Source: Cecembia rubra (GTDB taxonomy: Bacteria > Bacteroidota > Bacteroidia > Cytophagales > Cyclobacteriaceae). Taken from it: a stretch of 64,000 nucleotides of DNA. Within the stretch, counting starts at the first letter, position 1. Each line of letters opens with the position of its first letter. The stretch lies in assembly GCF_003014575.1 (NCBI RefSeq), contig NZ_PYGF01000007.1, positions 186,001-250,000 of the forward strand, read 5' to 3'. Shown in pieces: positions 1,706-6,053 of this stretch. Position numbers and translations under genes: made by a program. The notes under the pieces are model-generated. The model saw nothing but the letters and a program-made list of their open reading frames with translations, was not told where the DNA came from and did no database searches.

Positions 1706-1960
1706 TTATTCCCCACAGGCCCCTTCTTCAAACTTCAAAATACCTTTGGCACCGGCTTCACAAGCATTGCCGTAGGTTTTTCCATCGCAGCCACAGACGG
1801 GTTGATAGATGGCTGGACACATGATATCTTCCCTTATTTTACTGCTATCAAAGCAGTCTTTGGCCAATAACACCTCTGGTTCAGTTTGTACATTTTCACA
1901 CATAAAAGCTGAGGAAAAAAGGAATGGAAGAACAAATAGAAGGTTCAGTGTTTTTTTCAT
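1706..1960 (-). CDS. Small secreted Kazal-type protease inhibitor domain protein
   Basis: An 84-residue protein with a hydrophobic signal sequence (residues 3-20) ending at Cys21, possibly a lipoprotein although the lipobox is poor. It is followed by one Kazal-like domain. The cysteines C36, C48, C56, C58, C67 and C82, with the PVCGCDGKTYGNAC core, fit the six-cysteine Kazal pattern. Known members inhibit serine proteases; here the target is unknown. It stands alone, convergent with the acyl-CoA oxidase and divergent from the HNH gene. Confidence 0.75.
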   Translation of the reverse strand: MKKTLNLLFVLPFLFSSAFMCENVQTEPEVLLAKDCFDSSKIREDIMCPAIYQPVCGCDGKTYGNACEAGAKGILKFEEGACGE

Positions 1961-2109: not shown

Positions 2110-3171
2110 ATGGAATTTCCCAAGGATTCAAACCTTCCTACTCATCTATTAGCTTCTTGTTTTGATAGCACATCTGCTACCTATAAGTACTATTGGTTTT
2201 TGAGTATTCTAGATTGTCTTAATGGTGGAATAAGGATAATTGAAAAAAGAGAACTCTTCGCTCGGATGGTTGCCATACCTTGGTATACAGTGAATTATTT
2301 TCAGGTTTCTTTTGGTAAGCAGGACGTGATTCATAGAGCAGTAGAGAATATAAAAAGAATTGAAAATATTTCCATTGAGGAGCACAAAAATGTAATTGTA
2401 GAGAAGTTAGTTCAATCTCAAAATCAAGAAACTCAAAAGACACTGAATCATTTTAATAATCAAGTTCCCCATTGGTTTTTGGCTCCTTGGTTAAAAGGAG
2501 AAAAATTGATATCAAGAATATACTCTAGATCTCAAGGCTTTGAAAATGATTGTTTATATGCACTTTACCCAAATCATGTTGAAATAAACTCGAATTGGAT
2601 ACCTTACTTAATCCAAAATATACGCTTTTTAAGAGACTTTTGCTTTTGGAATCTCGCCATTTTCTTACAAAAAAGGAATCCTGGCTTACCTGATGTTCCA
2701 AGTAAACTTATAAAGCCTCCTTCAAGAATCCCATTAACCAATCAAAGGAAGAACTTTTGGAATCTTTTCTTTGATGAAGTTGGAACAATGAAGTGTATTT
2801 ATACTGGCGAAAATCTAAATAAGTCAAATTACGTAGTCGAACATTTTATTCCTCACAGATATGTTTGTCATGATCTTATTTGGAATCTTGTACCGGCAGA
2901 TTCAACATTTAACTCCACCAAAAGTGACAAAATACCTGTGTTAGAAGACTTCTTTGATGATTTTTATGAAATTCATAGAAAGGCCATTGAAATTGTATCT
3001 GTAAAAGATCCCAAATCAAATTACCTTTTTGAATACTTAGATATTTTTCAAGGTGTCCAGGATATAAAAAAATTATCAGAATCATTTGAAAAAGAAAAAT
3101 TCAGAAAAACTTTTAATCCAATGGTTTTAATGGCAATTAATAATGGGTTTCAATCTTTAGCCAAATCATGA
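2110..3171 (+). CDS. HNH endonuclease domain protein
   Basis: A 353-residue protein whose C-terminal third carries an HNH-like core. This has CIYTGE, then EH at residues 244-245, WNLVP with Asn259, and a downstream N-x-x-K-x-x-K-x-P element, as in HNH_4/Cas9-like HNH folds. The N-terminal 200 residues match no family I recognise and may supply specificity or partner binding. It lacks the paired zinc cysteines of many HNH proteins. Its last codons overlap the next gene by 4 bp (ATGA), so the two are probably translationally coupled. The DNA is clearly more AT-rich than the flanks, which suggests horizontal transfer. A defence role is inference only. Confidence 0.65.
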   Translation: MEFPKDSNLPTHLLASCFDSTSATYKYYWFLSILDCLNGGIRIIEKRELFARMVAIPWYTVNYFQVSFGKQDVIHRAVENIKRIENISIEEHKNVIVEKLVQSQNQETQKTLNHFNNQVPHWFLAPWLKGEKLISRIYSRSQGFENDCLYALYPNHVEINSNWIPYLIQNIRFLRDFCFWNLAIFLQKRNPGLPDVPSKLIKPPSRIPLTNQRKNFWNLFFDEVGTMKCIYTGENLNKSNYVVEHFIPHRYVCHDLIWNLVPADSTFNSTKSDKIPVLEDFFDDFYEIHRKAIEIVSVKDPKSNYLFEYLDIFQGVQDIKKLSESFEKEKFRKTFNPMVLMAINNGFQSLAKS

Positions 3172-4025
3172 AAAATAAATTTTCCCATCTCACTGCTAAA
3201 GAAAGAGAAAAACTTTCTTATCCAGCAAGATTGCTTTTGGATAAGACGTTGCTTAGGGGAAAGATCCTAGATTTTGGTTGTGGTTTTGGAAAGGATGTGG
3301 AAATTCTCCAATCCAAGGGTTTGGATATCCAAGGGTATGACAGGCATTATTTTCCAACTTATCCACAAGGTAAATTTGATACCATCATCTGTTTTTATGT
3401 TCTGAATGTGTTGATGCTGGAAGAACAAACCAAGGTTTTATTGGAAATTTCGCAAATATTAAAACCAGGAGGAATAGCCTATTTTGCTGTCAGAAGGGAT
3501 GTGAAAAAATCAGGTTTCAGAAACCACAAAATACACCAAAAACCCACTTATCAATGTAACGTCATACTTCCATTTCAATCTGTTTTTCGAAATGAAAACT
3601 GTGAAATTTATGAATATCAACATATTAATCATCTGATTCATGAAGATGGTCAGTCGTGTATTTTTTGTAACCCTTCGAAGGATATGGAATTGATTGCAGA
3701 ATCGGCATCAGTTTATGCTATCTATGACAAATATCCAGTTGGTAATGGCCATGCTTTGATTATTCCCAAGAGACATGTGGAAAACTTTTTCGATTTAAGC
3801 TTGAAAGAACATGCAGCTTTGTTTTTTGTGCTTAACCATATAAAAACCCAACTTCAAAACCTTTTTAATCCAGATGGATTCAATGTGGGAATCAACATAG
3901 GAGAAAAAGCCGGTCAAACCATCCCCCATGTGCATATTCATTTAATTCCAAGGTATGCAGGGGATATTGATGATCCTGAAGGAGGTGTCAGGGGGGTTAT
4001 TCCTCAAAGAAGGAAGTATAAGTAA
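3168..4025 (+). CDS. Class I SAM methyltransferase - HIT hydrolase fusion
   Basis: A 285-residue two-domain protein. Residues 1-160 form a compact Rossmann methyltransferase: SAM motif I at residues 33-43 (ILDFGCGFGKD), an acidic loop GYDRH, and a LKPGG motif. Residues 164-285 form a HIT domain that starts with C164-x2-C167 and ends with the HIT triad H254-x-H256-x-H258. HIT proteins hydrolyse or transfer nucleotides on small nucleotidyl conjugates. The gene overlaps the HNH gene by 4 bp and shares its low GC. The combination suggests nucleic-acid or nucleotide modification coupled to nucleotidyl cleavage; the substrate is unknown. Confidence 0.8.
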   Translation: MKNKFSHLTAKEREKLSYPARLLLDKTLLRGKILDFGCGFGKDVEILQSKGLDIQGYDRHYFPTYPQGKFDTIICFYVLNVLMLEEQTKVLLEISQILKPGGIAYFAVRRDVKKSGFRNHKIHQKPTYQCNVILPFQSVFRNENCEIYEYQHINHLIHEDGQSCIFCNPSKDMELIAESASVYAIYDKYPVGNGHALIIPKRHVENFFDLSLKEHAALFFVLNHIKTQLQNLFNPDGFNVGINIGEKAGQTIPHVHIHLIPRYAGDIDDPEGGVRGVIPQRRKYK

Positions 4026-4095: not shown

Positions 4096-4704
4096 ATGAA
4101 GAAATTTTTGATATTTTCTCTTTTTGCCCTGTTGATACAGTCCTGTATCACTTCTCGCATCAACTCTCACAAACTCGTAGACCAAGCCGAACGCTATAAT
4201 AAACTACTTTTGCTGATCACTGACTCTGAGCAGGATTTCTATGAATGGAATCAGGAAAACTTTGACTATGTGATCTACAGTAGGTTCAACCACCTAGATA
4301 CCGATTATGAAAGGAAAGTCATTGGCAATGCCCTGCAAAGGAACATAAGACCTACCATCATCGTCCCTGCCGACAAAGCCTTCACGATCCATAGTGAGGT
4401 GAGCTATGCAGACTTTATGAACACCCTCAATTACTTAGAATATGATGCGGTATTGTTGGTTCAGATCAAGGGCTTATGGAAGGAGCAAAGAATCAGAGAA
4501 GGGGACAGTTATTTTGTACCACGATCAGAATTTCATGTATTTCTAATAGATAAACAACGCTTCAAAAATCAATACCTCGCCAAAATAAATGTGGATGGTG
4601 GAAGCGGATGGAATAATTTTGAAGAGATATTCAGCCGCTTTTCCAGAGAACTCGCCAAGGACCTCAGCGACAAAGGATTTATCCTAAGACCTGCTGTATT
4701 GTGA
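4096..4704 (+). CDS. Hypothetical lipoprotein
   Basis: A 202-residue protein with a short signal peptide and a lipobox-like LIQSC placing the lipidated cysteine at C17. The mature part is a mixed alpha/beta sequence with no motif I recognise. GC is nearer the chromosome average than the preceding island. It stands alone, about 70 bp after the methyltransferase-HIT gene, and may not belong to that unit. Confidence 0.6.
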   Translation: MKKFLIFSLFALLIQSCITSRINSHKLVDQAERYNKLLLLITDSEQDFYEWNQENFDYVIYSRFNHLDTDYERKVIGNALQRNIRPTIIVPADKAFTIHSEVSYADFMNTLNYLEYDAVLLVQIKGLWKEQRIREGDSYFVPRSEFHVFLIDKQRFKNQYLAKINVDGGSGWNNFEEIFSRFSRELAKDLSDKGFILRPAVL

Positions 4705-4798
4705 TCCAAGGATTCATTCCTGATTTAAATACCACAGCATCAATCTGGCAATGCTTCACGACTTTTACATCGCTACAAAAAATTTATGCCTGATTTTG

Positions 4799-4825
4799 CA
4801 AATTGTATTTTACAATTTGTAAAAT
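4799..4825. promoter_or_regulatory. Overlapping perfect palindromes upstream of ATPase remnant
   Basis: Two interlocked inverted repeats. CAAATTGTA (4799-4807) pairs with TACAATTTG (4811-4819) across 3 bp. ATTTTACAA (4807-4815) pairs with TTGTAAAAT (4817-4825) across 1 bp. The block ends 14 bp before the start codon of the decayed ATPase. It looks like an operator or a phased dimer site. The two hairpins are mutually exclusive in RNA. Confidence 0.6.
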
Positions 4826-4839
4826 CAAATCTTCAAATA

Positions 4840-5474
4840 ATGAATCCAACAAGTCCTTTTCCCACTACAGGCTATTATGGTCCCAAGTACTTTTGTAACA
4901 GGAAAATTGAAACCCAAAATATCCTATCCATGTTGACTGGTGGTGAATCTAGTCTTTTGCTTGGTTTCAGAAGACTTGGGAAAACAGCCTTGATACGTCA
5001 TGTTATGGGAAAAATTACCCAAAGGTTGGATAGGAATTTACCTTAATATCTTATACAGAAAATGAAAAGGAATTTTTGAATTCGCTTGCTTCAGGTCTTT
5101 TACAGTCCATACCTGAAAAAAGTCCGTTTGGAAAAAATGTTTGGAACTTCATCAAATCCCTAAGGCCAACGATTAGTTTTGATGCACTTTCTGGTATCCC
5201 ATAAGTCGGATTGGATGTAAAAGACACCCCAAAACAAGTAAAGGACATCTTTCAGTTTTTGGTTCAACAGGATATCCCAATAGTAGTTGCCATTGATGAA
5301 TTTCAGCAGACAGGTAACTATCCCGGAAAAACACGGATGCCTGGCTTAGGGGATTGATATAGTCACTACCCAACGTGCGTTTCATTTTTGCTGGCAGTCA
5401 GCAACATTCCTGCTGGAATTTAATTTTTTAGGAAAGCAAATGGCCTCGGTAAATCAGAATTTTTGGGAATGGGA
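4840..5474 (+). pseudogene. Decayed AAA-family ATP-binding protein
   Basis: Homology survives in pieces across frames. An intact N-terminus from the Met at 4840 includes a P-loop GFRRLGKTALI and ends at a stop at 5044-5046. A second frame carries about 90 residues with a Walker B VAIDEFQQ, interrupted by an in-frame TAA at 5202-5204. After another frameshift near 5325, a third frame reads TDAWLRGLI, a TAG at 5360-5362, and VRFIFAGSQQH. The C-terminal half is missing and the remnant runs into the 3' end of the MarR gene. The family is the mobile archaeal-type AAA ATPase group common in Bacteroidota. At least two frameshifts and two nonsense changes make it non-functional. Confidence 0.8.
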
Positions 5475-5891
5475 CTTCAGACTTTCCAAGAGTTTGTTCA
5501 TCAGCTGTTCCAGTTTGCTTTTGTCCTTTTCGGCCCAATTCGCAAAGACGGCATCCAAACTGGATGAAATCAAAGAAGCCTTGGACTGTAATGATTTTCC
5601 CGGATAGGTCAATTGAATCCCCACCTTGCGTTCATCTTTCTCACTTCTTTCCCTTTTGACCAAGTTCATTGCCTCTAAGCGCTTCAATAAAGGTGTAAGT
5701 GTTCCCGAATCCAAAGAGAGTCTCTCTCCTATTTGGGATACCATTAGCCCATCCTCTTCCCAAAGACAAAGCATGACGAGGTATTGTGGATAGGTCAAGC
5801 TCAAGGACTCCAAAGGTTCCCGGTAAGCTTGCGAAATCAGTCTGGATACTACATAGAATGGAAATCCAGGTTCTTTCTCTAGATTGGCCAT
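5454..5891 (-). CDS. MarR/OhrR-type transcriptional regulator lacking the N-terminal sensing Cys
   Basis: A 145-residue winged-helix repressor taken from the Met at 5891; an in-frame Met at 5942 would add a poor extension. LTYPQYLVMLCLWEED, LDSGTLTPLLKRLE and RSEKDERKV match the OhrR subgroup closely. OhrR proteins sense organic peroxides through a cysteine a few residues before the FxLYxxSR segment. Here that position is Gly (PGFPFYVVSR), so peroxide sensing by the usual thiol is not expected. The only other obvious cysteine is in the LCLWEED helix. No ohr gene lies beside it, so the target is unknown. Confidence 0.8.
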   Translation of the reverse strand: MANLEKEPGFPFYVVSRLISQAYREPLESLSLTYPQYLVMLCLWEEDGLMVSQIGERLSLDSGTLTPLLKRLEAMNLVKRERSEKDERKVGIQLTYPGKSLQSKASLISSSLDAVFANWAEKDKSKLEQLMNKLLESLKSHSQKF

Positions 5892-6053
5892 AATTTTTGA
5901 TTGTAAACAATTAAATTTATGAAAATTTATATTCGAAAACAAGGGAATTAATACCTCATTTGTTGATTTTTCTCAGGAACAAGGTTTGCTTTCAATTTTA
6001 GTTGTAGATAAGGATAAAATCATTTAGCTTTAAAAGTTTACACAAAGTTTAAA

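What the first reader, a model, noticed from the sequence alone, without database searches (positions are those of the whole stretch)
2110..4025. AT-rich, overlapping HNH nuclease and methyltransferase-HIT fusion: candidate undescribed system
Two coupled genes (ATGA overlap) combine an HNH nuclease, a SAM methyltransferase and a HIT nucleotide hydrolase in an AT-rich island beside a decayed mobile ATPase. Nuclease plus methyltransferase plus nucleotide-conjugate hydrolase would suit a modification or abortive-type defence unit. I know of no characterised system with this exact composition.
Basis: partly seen in the sequence, partly recalled or inferred. Interest (0 to 1): 0.65.

Follow-up and report, generated by a model that had tools for sequence, protein, structure and literature searches.

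The report
HNH nuclease paired with HIT hydrolase
A DNA-cutting enzyme gene sits back to back with a gene for a nucleotide-trimming enzyme fused to a methyltransferase, a pairing kept across many bacteria that looks like an undescribed defence or DNA-processing unit whose exact job is still unknown.

Summary
Window 2110-3171 encodes a 353-aa HNH nuclease (winged-helix-like N-terminal half, Cas9-like HNH core); 3168-4025 encodes a methyltransferase-HIT fusion; they overlap by ATGA. The pair is a conserved cassette: in 395 Bacteroidota genomes all 17 full-length MT-HIT genes lie directly downstream of an HNH gene; 42 pairs co-diverge (r 0.91). Beyond the finding: the constant part is a HIT subfamily with a GG[VI]R...Y tail, not the methyltransferase. 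In 395 genomes of the class, 26 of 27 tailed-HIT matches have an HNH gene directly upstream (24) or are fused to one (2); the 27th is broken. Partners are of at least five kinds; the MT is optional. No untailed HIT checked (26) had an HNH nearby. Outside that sample the link is looser, and 28 of 80 HNH relatives have no HIT. Some cassettes abut Wadjet, Cas9 or SspA genes; the window copy sits in stable synteny, reduced to remnants in a congener. Best guess: a restriction-type nuclease whose HIT partner removes AMP from adenylylated DNA ends; defence is likely, the substrate inferred. My searches found no paper on it.

The parts
2110..3171 (+). HNH endonuclease gene, 353 aa ('type A')
   Evidence: ORF; Pfam HNH_4 32.1 bits, cut-off 22; AlphaFold2 mean pLDDT 92.1
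2119..2670 (+). N-terminal half, residues 4-187; winged-helix-like, presumed DNA-binding
   Evidence: VIA-align 2: Cdc6 1fnn_A Z 7.5, rmsd 2.9, 108 aligned; ORC1/ORC rows Z 5.6-6.2; moderate, may be only a common arrangement. Not aligned to the N-termini of the other HNH kinds
2794..2937 (+). HNH core, residues 229-276; H245 and N268 invariant
   Evidence: Pfam; invariant columns in 47 rows and 41 rows; Cas9 HNH domains in PDB by profile, best E 1.3e-5, and by fold Z about 5
3168..3171 (+). ATGA overlap of the two genes
   Evidence: sequence
3168..4025 (+). Methyltransferase-HIT fusion gene, 285 aa
   Evidence: ORF; Pfam; AlphaFold2 mean pLDDT 88.4
3168..3626 (+). Class I SAM methyltransferase domain, residues 1-153; motif DFGCGFGKD at 35-43; related to phosphorothioation-associated putative methyltransferases
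   Evidence: Pfam Methyltransf_23 48.8 bits; TIGR04096 E 6.8e-15 over 7-83, 54.8 bits, below its cut-off of 150; fold Z 13.8 to 7bgg; plasmid relatives
3651..4022 (+). HIT domain with C-terminal tail, residues 162-285
   Evidence: Pfam HIT 80 bits; fold Z 15.5 to 3imi, 15.0 to FHIT
3927..3941 (+). Histidine triad H254-V-H256-I-H258
   Evidence: sequence; H258 invariant, H254 and H256 nearly so in 30 rows
3981..4022 (+). Tail GGVRGVIPQRRKYK that marks the HNH-linked HIT subfamily
   Evidence: alignments; untailed HITs checked lack HNH neighbours
1706..1960 (-). Flank: Kazal-domain gene, on this side of the cassette also in another genus and beside the remnants in a congener
   Evidence: Pfam Kazal_1; tblastn
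5454..5942 (-). Flank: MarR-family regulator, directly next to the cassette in the other genus
   Evidence: Pfam MarR; tblastn L004/L038
4786..5046 (+). Flank: weak remnant of an ATPase-like gene, absent between cassette and MarR in L004/L038

Best explanation
A two-gene nuclease cassette, most likely of the restriction/anti-invader kind. Shown: the HNH gene and a tailed HIT gene form a co-inherited unit with overlapping or abutting reading frames; the HIT is constant, the HNH partner differs, and the MT is an optional N-terminal addition to the HIT. Inferred: (1) the HNH protein binds DNA through its winged-helix-like N-terminal half and cuts or nicks it at the Cas9-like HNH core (H245/N268); (2) it acts on invading or abnormal DNA; (3) the HIT domain, by family chemistry a hydrolase working through a nucleotidyl-His intermediate (H256), acts on nucleotidylylated nucleic acid, most simply the 5'-AMP-DNA that a ligase leaves at HNH nicks (aprataxin-like chemistry), either to keep cut foreign DNA from being resealed or to clear abortive ligations on host DNA; (4) the MT, related to phosphorothioation-associated methyltransferases and without a DNA-MTase [DNS]PP[FYW] motif, modifies the same intermediate or an end group. 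How likely: conserved functional unit 0.95, DNA nuclease 0.85, defence 0.65, adenylylated DNA as HIT substrate 0.3.
For: 17 of 17 full-length MT-HIT genes in 395 genomes are directly downstream of HNH genes. Of 27 tailed-HIT matches in 395 genomes of the class (a sample that overlaps the first), 24 are next to and 2 fused with an HNH; Pfam confirms 25 of these 26 partners. The own genome has only 3 distinct PF13395/PF01844 places in 4.75 Mb. Control: 0 of 26 untailed HIT loci checked has an HNH nearby (19, 7). Co-divergence r 0.91 over 42 pairs (shared descent adds to this). Partners L135 and L133 carry a sulfur-binding domain (PDB 8h0l, E 2.9e-9 and 2.3e-7). A tailed HIT stands in an HNH-HIT-Vsr-like-C5-MTase-like run (L138) and in HNH-HIT-C5-MTase-like (L135) (by eye). 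Neighbours: JetABCD after L083's cassette, Cas9 after L100's, SspA beside L069's and L091's. The best-matching NCBIfam MT model is TIGR04096; many plasmid relatives of the MT are PT-associated. HNH relatives on 3 of 6 plasmids opened lie near cysteine desulfurase genes, 2 of these also DUF4007. In a congener both genes are reduced to adjoining remnants.
Against: 28 of 80 HNH relatives have no HIT next to them, so HIT is not needed for the nuclease. Outside the class sample tailed HITs are less strict: of nine fetched tailed loci of the phylum 5 have an HNH, 3 (L136, L137, L145) have none, and L143's upstream side is off the contig; of 8 tailed plasmid loci 4 have an HNH and 4 (Jeotgalibacillus, Pontibacillus, Paraburkholderia, Embleya) none found; the tailed HIT of phage phiSASD1 has none. 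In viral contigs the tailed HIT sits with 7-deazaguanine-type genes, with an HNH nearby in one of 13. The window copy is in stable synteny, and the contexts of L041, L051, L066, L086 and L092 look like housekeeping (by eye). L006/L187 has lost the middle His of the triad, so catalysis is not always kept. The HNH search model was built from the partner proteins themselves and misses HNH_2 types (a second model was added). No assay; the HIT substrate rests on family chemistry only.
Confidence: 0.42

Rival explanations
1. Modification-based unit: MT-HIT (or HIT) makes, edits or strips an unusual mark on DNA or on a nucleotide precursor, and the HNH protein reads that mark (or its absence) and cuts; an R-M-like or type IV-like pair.
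For: TIGR04096 is the best NCBIfam model for the MT; one MT-HIT partner (L133) and one HIT partner (L135) match a solved sulfur-binding domain, and L138's partner is 49% identical to L135's; SBD-HNH enzymes are known readers of phosphorothioate (PMC7461809, PMC10853773, passages). In 12 of 13 distinct viral contigs the tailed HIT lies near FolE/QueD/QueE-like genes of the 7-deazaguanine pathway (motif scan; five proteins by Pfam); phiSASD1 gp4 follows a PAPS-reductase-like gene.
Against: MT lacks [DNS]PP[FYW] and is often absent; own genome has no DndD match at E <= 0.001 (the DUF4007 search rang in no control). I saw no modification gene conserved beside the cassette in the loci listed.
Confidence: 0.22
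2. Signal control: the HIT domain degrades a nucleotide second messenger that would activate the nuclease, as has been proposed for ThsC in Thoeris II.
For: Best PADLOC match of the HIT is ThsC2 (E 9e-14); PMC8565338 hypothesises a role of ThsC in forming or degrading the messenger (passage). TIR-HIT pairs exist on mycobacterial plasmids.
Against: No TIR, cyclase or nucleotide-sensor domain seen in the cassette or in the neighbours listed; HNH N-terminus looks like a winged helix; the two TIR-linked HITs lack the tail.
Confidence: 0.13
3. Toxin-antitoxin-like unit: HNH is the toxin and MT-HIT neutralises it or repairs the damage.
For: Overlapping two-gene operon; patchy presence; both genes decayed together in a congener.
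Against: HNH relatives live without an adjacent HIT in 28 of 80 loci; HNH-HIT single polypeptides exist, unusual for toxin and antitoxin.
Confidence: 0.1
4. Not defence: a nuclease-repair pair used in ordinary DNA maintenance or by mobile elements, with HIT as a generic nucleotide hydrolase.
For: Several copies, the window's included, sit in housekeeping-like synteny.
Against: Patchy distribution (full-length type A HNH in 4 of 59 genomes, the own one included), diverse HNH partners, neighbours JetABCD/Cas9/SspA in some loci.
Confidence: 0.13

Closest known systems
SBD-HNH / wHTH-SAD-HNH modification-dependent nucleases (ScoMcrA, SprMcrA class)
   Same: N-terminal DNA-binding half plus C-terminal HNH; some tailed HITs pair with SBD-HNH proteins
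   Different: The window HNH is HNH_4, not HNH_2, and does not align to the SBD-HNH profile (hhalign probability 0.5%); no HIT partner appeared in the passages read of PMC7461809 and PMC10853773
Cas9 HNH domain
   Same: HNH_4-type core; best PDB sequence and fold matches of that part
   Different: Only the HNH part matches: TIGR01865 22.3 bits against a cut-off of 100
Thoeris type II ThsC (HIT)
   Same: HIT domain in a candidate defence operon (PMC8565338 passage)
   Different: No ThsA/ThsB seen beside it; the two TIR-linked HITs looked at lack the tail
TIGR04096 DNA phosphorothioation-associated putative methyltransferase
   Same: First 80 residues of the MT (E 6.8e-15); 15 of the 25 listed (38 in all) plasmid relatives of the MT bear this name, four of them near-identical Synechocystis records
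   Different: 54.8 bits against 150; about 155 aa plus HIT instead of a 478-position model; the top-ranked plasmid relatives are unnamed or plain methyltransferases
Aprataxin, Hint, Fhit, MccH (HIT hydrolases)
   Same: Histidine triad, fold of Hint/Fhit type; MccH shows a HIT enzyme adapted to a dedicated cluster (PMC7157772 passages)
   Different: Own C-terminal tail; linkage to HNH nucleases; no relation to aprataxin itself was tested

Membership tests
HNH_4 endonuclease (PF13395) | score over the curated cut-off | tested here: met
   32.1 against 22 bits
HNH_4 endonuclease (PF13395) | catalytic His and Asn kept | tested here: met
   H245 and N268 invariant in 47 and 41 rows; their equivalence to Cas9 H840/N863 is recalled, not computed
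HIT superfamily (PF01230) | score over the cut-off and HxHxH triad | tested here: met
   80 against 21.5 bits; HVHIH; middle His lost in relative L006
Class I SAM methyltransferase | Rossmann SAM-binding fold and motif I | tested here: met
   Pfam, DFGCGFG, fold Z 13.8
DNA amino-methyltransferase (N4/N6) | catalytic motif [DNS]PP[FYW] | tested here: not met
   no PP in the domain; the stretch after strand 4 reads FYVLNVL, by eye
TIGR04096 dnd_rel_methyl | score over the curated cut-off | tested here: not met
   54.8 against 150 bits, 7-83 only
SBD-HNH restriction enzyme | sulfur-binding N-terminal domain | tested here: inconclusive
   hhalign of type A with SBD-HNH probability 0.5%; the fold search shows a winged-helix-like half
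Thoeris type II | ThsA/ThsB beside the HIT gene | tested here: not met
   neighbours scanned: HNH, Kazal, ATPase remnant, MarR; the lipoprotein-like ORF 4096-4704 has no Pfam match; only these were scanned
Cas9 / type II CRISPR | full-length Cas9 match | tested here: not met
   TIGR01865 22.3 against 100 bits, HNH part only
Anti-phage defence system | protects against phage or plasmid | not testable with these tools
   needs plaque and transformation assays
Anti-phage defence system | found in defence islands | tested here: inconclusive
   JetABCD, Cas9 or SspA beside 4 of 13 loci listed, chosen by me and not at random; others, the window's included, in housekeeping-like surroundings; no random-gene control was scanned

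The most novel reading that the evidence does not exclude
A HIT subfamily marked by a GG[VI]R...Y tail is a general partner enzyme of DNA recognition-and-cleavage or DNA-modification machinery: in bacteria it travels with at least five kinds of HNH nucleases (one a phosphorothioate-reader type, one fused to it), and in phages with 7-deazaguanine synthesis genes, acting on adenylylated DNA or base intermediates. HNH-HIT would then be an undescribed class of restriction system in which a nucleotide hydrolase controls the fate of cut ends.
Probability: 0.25. Interest if true: 0.85.

Novelty: new variant of a known kind. Interest (0 to 1): 0.6.

Why it matters
If the reading holds, bacteria couple DNA-cutting HNH enzymes to a dedicated HIT hydrolase, so that cutting and the handling of the cut ends are inherited together. 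That would give a testable role to a HIT subfamily that annotation calls 'HIT family protein' or 'diadenosine polyphosphate hydrolase', link it to phosphorothioate and 7-deazaguanine biology, and add a searchable signature (tailed HIT next to HNH) for finding nuclease systems that defence catalogues may miss.

Tried and rejected
Cassette as a Dnd/Ssp phosphorothioation component: HNH relatives on 3 of 6 plasmids opened and the cassettes of L069/L091 lie near SspA-type or cysteine desulfurase genes, but the own genome has no DndD match at E <= 0.001 (its controls rang only below the cut-off), the DUF4007 search rang in no control (uninformative), and most of the loci listed show no such genes (by eye); kept only as a lead.

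N-terminal half of the window HNH as a sulfur-binding domain: suggested by a shared look ('TYKF..L' against 'HKPF.LL'); profile-profile comparison did not support it. No SBD was among the rows shown by VIA-align, which excludes nothing.

All HNH partners as one family: types A, B and C share the HNH core (hhalign probabilities 98.0 and 97.3) but their N-terminal halves were not aligned; SBD-HNH partners (HNH_2) do not align to A or C. My types C, D and E are 29-31% identical in one alignment and may be one family, hence 'at least five kinds' (A, B, C/D/E, SBD-HNH, the HNH fused to HIT). The sorting is mine, by eye. One of the 26 partners has no Pfam HNH match at 0.01 (L167 or L168; L167 had none at 0.001); I read an HNH-like stretch there by eye.

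MT as the essential part: rejected, since 14 of the 26 intact tailed HITs in the class sample are standalone and 2 more are fused to HNH without MT.

Defence-island statistics: PADLOC scans of 149 neighbours of HNH-HIT loci and 149 of HIT-less HNH loci list families, not loci, show the first 25 only, and I ran no random control; used only to find SspA/SspB. Before the scan I skipped 19 of the loci with HIT as near-duplicates or short contigs and L060 of the others, dropped genes over 900 or under 100 aa, and kept the first 149 of 167 and of 150.

Extension of L094/L097 MT-HIT as Myb/SANT-like: by eye; Pfam gave no match to it in L094.

Viral contigs: the tailed HITs there are not HNH partners as a rule; L029 has an HNH gene (E 1.4e-4) about 140 bases upstream.

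Not reached: genomes outside Bacteroidota in bulk. Plasmids: HIT next to HNH in Polaromonas, Aromatoleum, Hymenobacter and Persicobacter; no HNH found by the two models in Jeotgalibacillus, Pontibacillus, Paraburkholderia and Embleya (tailed) nor in the six untailed loci L154, L157-L159, L161, L162.

Papers: one search listed 5 papers with 'histidine triad' and 'HNH endonuclease'; I opened one (PMC8565338) and judged the other four by title and abstract start only.
Full report
WHAT IS THERE. Window 2110-3171 (+) is an ORF of 353 aa and 3168-4025 (+) one of 285 aa; bases 3168-3171 are ATGA, the start of the second and the stop of the first. The first carries HNH_4 (32.1 bits, cut-off 22), the second Methyltransf_23 (48.8, cut-off 27) and HIT (80, cut-off 21.5). 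G+C is 0.316 and 0.359 against 0.412 for the window. AlphaFold2 models from 41 and 30 sequences have mean pLDDT 92.1 and 88.4. The HNH protein has two halves: residues 4-187 resemble the winged-helix part of Cdc6/ORC1 (Z 7.5, rmsd 2.9, 108 residues; moderate, may be a common arrangement), residues 207-346 the Cas9 HNH domain (Z about 5) (sequence match to Cas9 HNH best E 1.3e-5). In the fusion the HIT part matches HIT proteins (3imi Z 15.5, rmsd 2.3, 110 residues; FHIT 15.0) and the MT part class I methyltransferases of small molecules and tRNA (7bgg Z 13.8, rmsd 2.5, 140 residues). H245 and N268 of the HNH are invariant in 47 rows; H258 and H195 of the HIT are invariant and H254/H256 nearly so in 30 rows.

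THE PAIR IS CONSERVED. Among 59 genomes (the own one included), full-length relatives of the HNH occur in 4 (G000, G021, G019, G046; identity 100, 66, 46, 34%), each followed directly by an MT-HIT; of the 4 weaker matches, those of G027 and G026 have an MT-HIT beside them, that of G048 a HIT, and that of the congener G001 is a remnant. In the genome collection 289 HNH relatives were confirmed and the 80 most similar kept; all whose record names a group are Bacteroidota, Kapaibacterium included (L068 names none). In these 80 the next gene on the same strand is an MT-HIT in 43 (one cut by the contig end), a standalone HIT in 9, and neither in 28 (one of these at a contig end). L004 and L038 are probably the same genome. 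Starting instead from the MT-HIT profile, 395 Bacteroidota genomes hold 17 full-length matches, the own one included, and all 17 lie directly downstream of an HNH gene: 16 found by the HNH profile (one HNH cut by the contig end) and L133 by Pfam HNH_2. By my sorting 8 of the 17 partners are like the window's (type A), 8 are a second HNH_4 kind (type B), 1 is SBD-HNH. No listed match covered the first 100 positions of the profile without the HIT (weaker rows were not listed). For 42 complete pairs the protein distances of HNH and MT-HIT correlate at 0.91; the highest of 2000 permutations was 0.20; common descent of both genes contributes to this. On the HNH tree (78 rows) the partner label changes at least 9 times, against 30 on average in shuffles: partners are inherited but sometimes gained or lost.

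THE CONSTANT PART IS THE HIT. The HITs in these loci share a C-terminal tail, GG[VI]R...Y. A profile of tailed HITs found 27 matches in 26 of 395 genomes of the window's class at E <= 1e-28 (this sample shares genomes with that). One (L188) is broken by stops and left no HIT ORF. Of the other 26, 24 have an HNH-type gene directly upstream on the same strand (gaps -92 to +9 bases with my longest-ORF starts) and 2 are HNH-HIT single proteins; Pfam at 0.01 confirms an HNH domain in 25 of the 26 (HNH_4 in 22, plus the HNH_2 partner L185 and the two fusions; the one left is L167 or L168). 10 of the 26 are MT-HIT, 14 standalone HIT, 2 the fusions. By my sorting the partners are type A 13, B 5, C 2, D 1, E 2, SBD-like 1, fusions 2; C, D and E may be one family, so I count at least five kinds over both samples. 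In L168, L176 and L177 the HNH frame is split, in L172 it is cut by the contig end. Outside that sample the link is looser: of nine other fetched tailed loci of the phylum (L135-L139, L143, L145, L146 and L196), five have an HNH beside or fused (L135, L138, L139, L146, L196), three have none (L136, L137, L145) and L143's upstream side is off the contig. On plasmids, of eight tailed loci fetched four have an HNH gene adjoining (Polaromonas, Aromatoleum, Hymenobacter, Persicobacter) and four have none. Control: 20 further HIT loci taken from the list were searched with an HNH model built from the partner proteins; 19 are untailed and have no HNH within about 1.5 kb, the one tailed (L196) has one, on the other strand; a second model for the HNH_2 kind gave the same, and so did seven more untailed loci (L147, L154, L157-L159, L161, L162). 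The own genome has 3 distinct places with PF13395 or PF01844 in 4.75 Mb, so adjacency by chance is rare.

RELATIONS OF THE PARTS. Types A, B and C share the HNH core (hhalign probability 98.0 and 97.3%); SBD-HNH partners do not align to A or C. The partners of L135 and L133 match the solved sulfur-binding domain 8h0l (E 2.9e-9, 2.3e-7). The best NCBIfam model for the MT is TIGR04096 (E 6.8e-15 but far below its cut-off), and 15 of the 25 listed plasmid relatives of the MT (38 records in all; four are near-identical Synechocystis records) are annotated as DNA phosphorothioation-associated putative methyltransferase, though the top-ranked ones are not. Relatives of the HNH on plasmids number 16 records; of six such regions opened, the HNH lies within a few genes of a cysteine desulfurase in three (Hymenobacter, Synechocystis, Leptolyngbya; DUF4007 in the first two) and not in Calothrix, Allochromatium and Nostoc. 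In viral contigs the same tailed HIT (13 distinct) sits within about 4.5 kb of FolE-, QueD- or QueE-like genes in 12 of 13 (motif scan); of five such proteins put to Pfam three are GTP cyclohydrolase I, one PTPS, and one a radical-SAM match below the cut-off.

SURROUNDINGS. Among 13 of the longer loci whose genes I listed (chosen by me, printout partly cut), PADLOC models identify JetA-D directly after the cassette of L083, Cas9 after that of L100, and SspA-type cysteine desulfurases beside L069 and L091; L039 and L096 have a 1600-aa protein with DpdF-like and UvrD-like helicase parts. Others look like housekeeping. In the window the same Kazal and MarR genes flank the cassette as in Mongoliitalea (L038). 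In the congener G001 the acyl-CoA-dehydrogenase-like and Kazal genes stand in place, but only a piece of the HNH (about residues 269-301) and the HIT end (226-285, 90% identical) could be found, adjoining each other: the stretch from HNH 302 to HIT 225 is gone, and so is the front of the HNH, so at least two deletions or one plus decay. So this is a unit that is gained and lost, though the window's copy is old at its site.

HOW IT PROBABLY WORKS. Shown: coupling, conservation, kept catalytic residues. Inferred: DNA cutting by the HNH (family), DNA binding by the N-terminal half (fold, moderate), anti-invader role (some neighbours, partner kinds, patchiness), and HIT action on adenylylated nucleic acid. 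The last rests on HIT family chemistry (aprataxin removes the AMP of abortive ligation products, PMC8385414 passages; the middle His attacks the phosphorus, and MccH shows a HIT enzyme adapted to a dedicated cluster, PMC7157772 passages) and on the setting: nicks that a ligase would adenylylate. Rivals are given with their evidence; none is excluded.

KNOWN OR NOT. Full-text searches for HIT or histidine triad together with HNH and defence or methyltransferase terms returned nothing that I recognised as describing the pair (of the five papers I opened one). PMC8565338 (passages) has HIT as ThsC in Thoeris II and, apart from it, HNH in Septu; PMC10853773, PMC12839542, PMC7461809 and PMC13092281 (passages) show HNH nucleases without a HIT partner in the passages seen. 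The library lacks most subscription papers and holds no bioRxiv collection, so this is absence from that library only. I therefore call it a new variant of a known kind (HNH restriction-type nuclease with a dedicated HIT partner), with the bolder reading in the section on the most novel reading.

Noticed in passing
L011-L030 (viral contigs), e.g. L018:4938-5324, L030:4908-5342: The tailed HIT subfamily occurs in phage-like contigs near FolE/QueD/QueE-like (7-deazaguanine) genes in 12 of 13 distinct cases, some with a phosphoribosyltransferase gene.
   Followed up: partly
L160:3537-3869 (Streptomyces phage phiSASD1 gp4): Tailed HIT directly after a PAPS-reductase-like (AANH) gene.
   Followed up: no
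L008 (G001), about 1343-1614: Congener keeps only adjoining remnants of both genes at the same locus; at least two deletions, or one plus decay.
   Followed up: yes
L141, L146, L186, L189: Single proteins with a different HNH domain fused to the tailed HIT; L141 and L186 are the same place.
   Followed up: partly
L157:2501-4008 and L158:2501-4008: TIR gene overlapping a gene for an untailed HIT with a membrane-like C-terminal part (read in L157) on mycobacterial plasmids; a Thoeris-like pair.
   Followed up: no
L039:4881-9698, L096:11888-16711: About 1600-aa protein with DpdF-like and UvrD-like helicase parts next to the cassette in two distant genomes.
   Followed up: no
L094:11047-12150, L097:10441-11544: MT-HIT with an extra C-terminal stretch (367 aa in all) that looks like a Myb/SANT-type helix domain by eye in L094.
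   Followed up: partly
L081:8741-9670, L099:11041-11991: HNH without HIT followed by a gene whose start resembles an EVE/PUA-like reader of modified bases, by eye.
   Followed up: no
window 4786-5400: Broken ATPase-like reading frame downstream of a lipoprotein-like ORF (4096-4704), between cassette and MarR gene, absent in L004/L038.
   Followed up: partly
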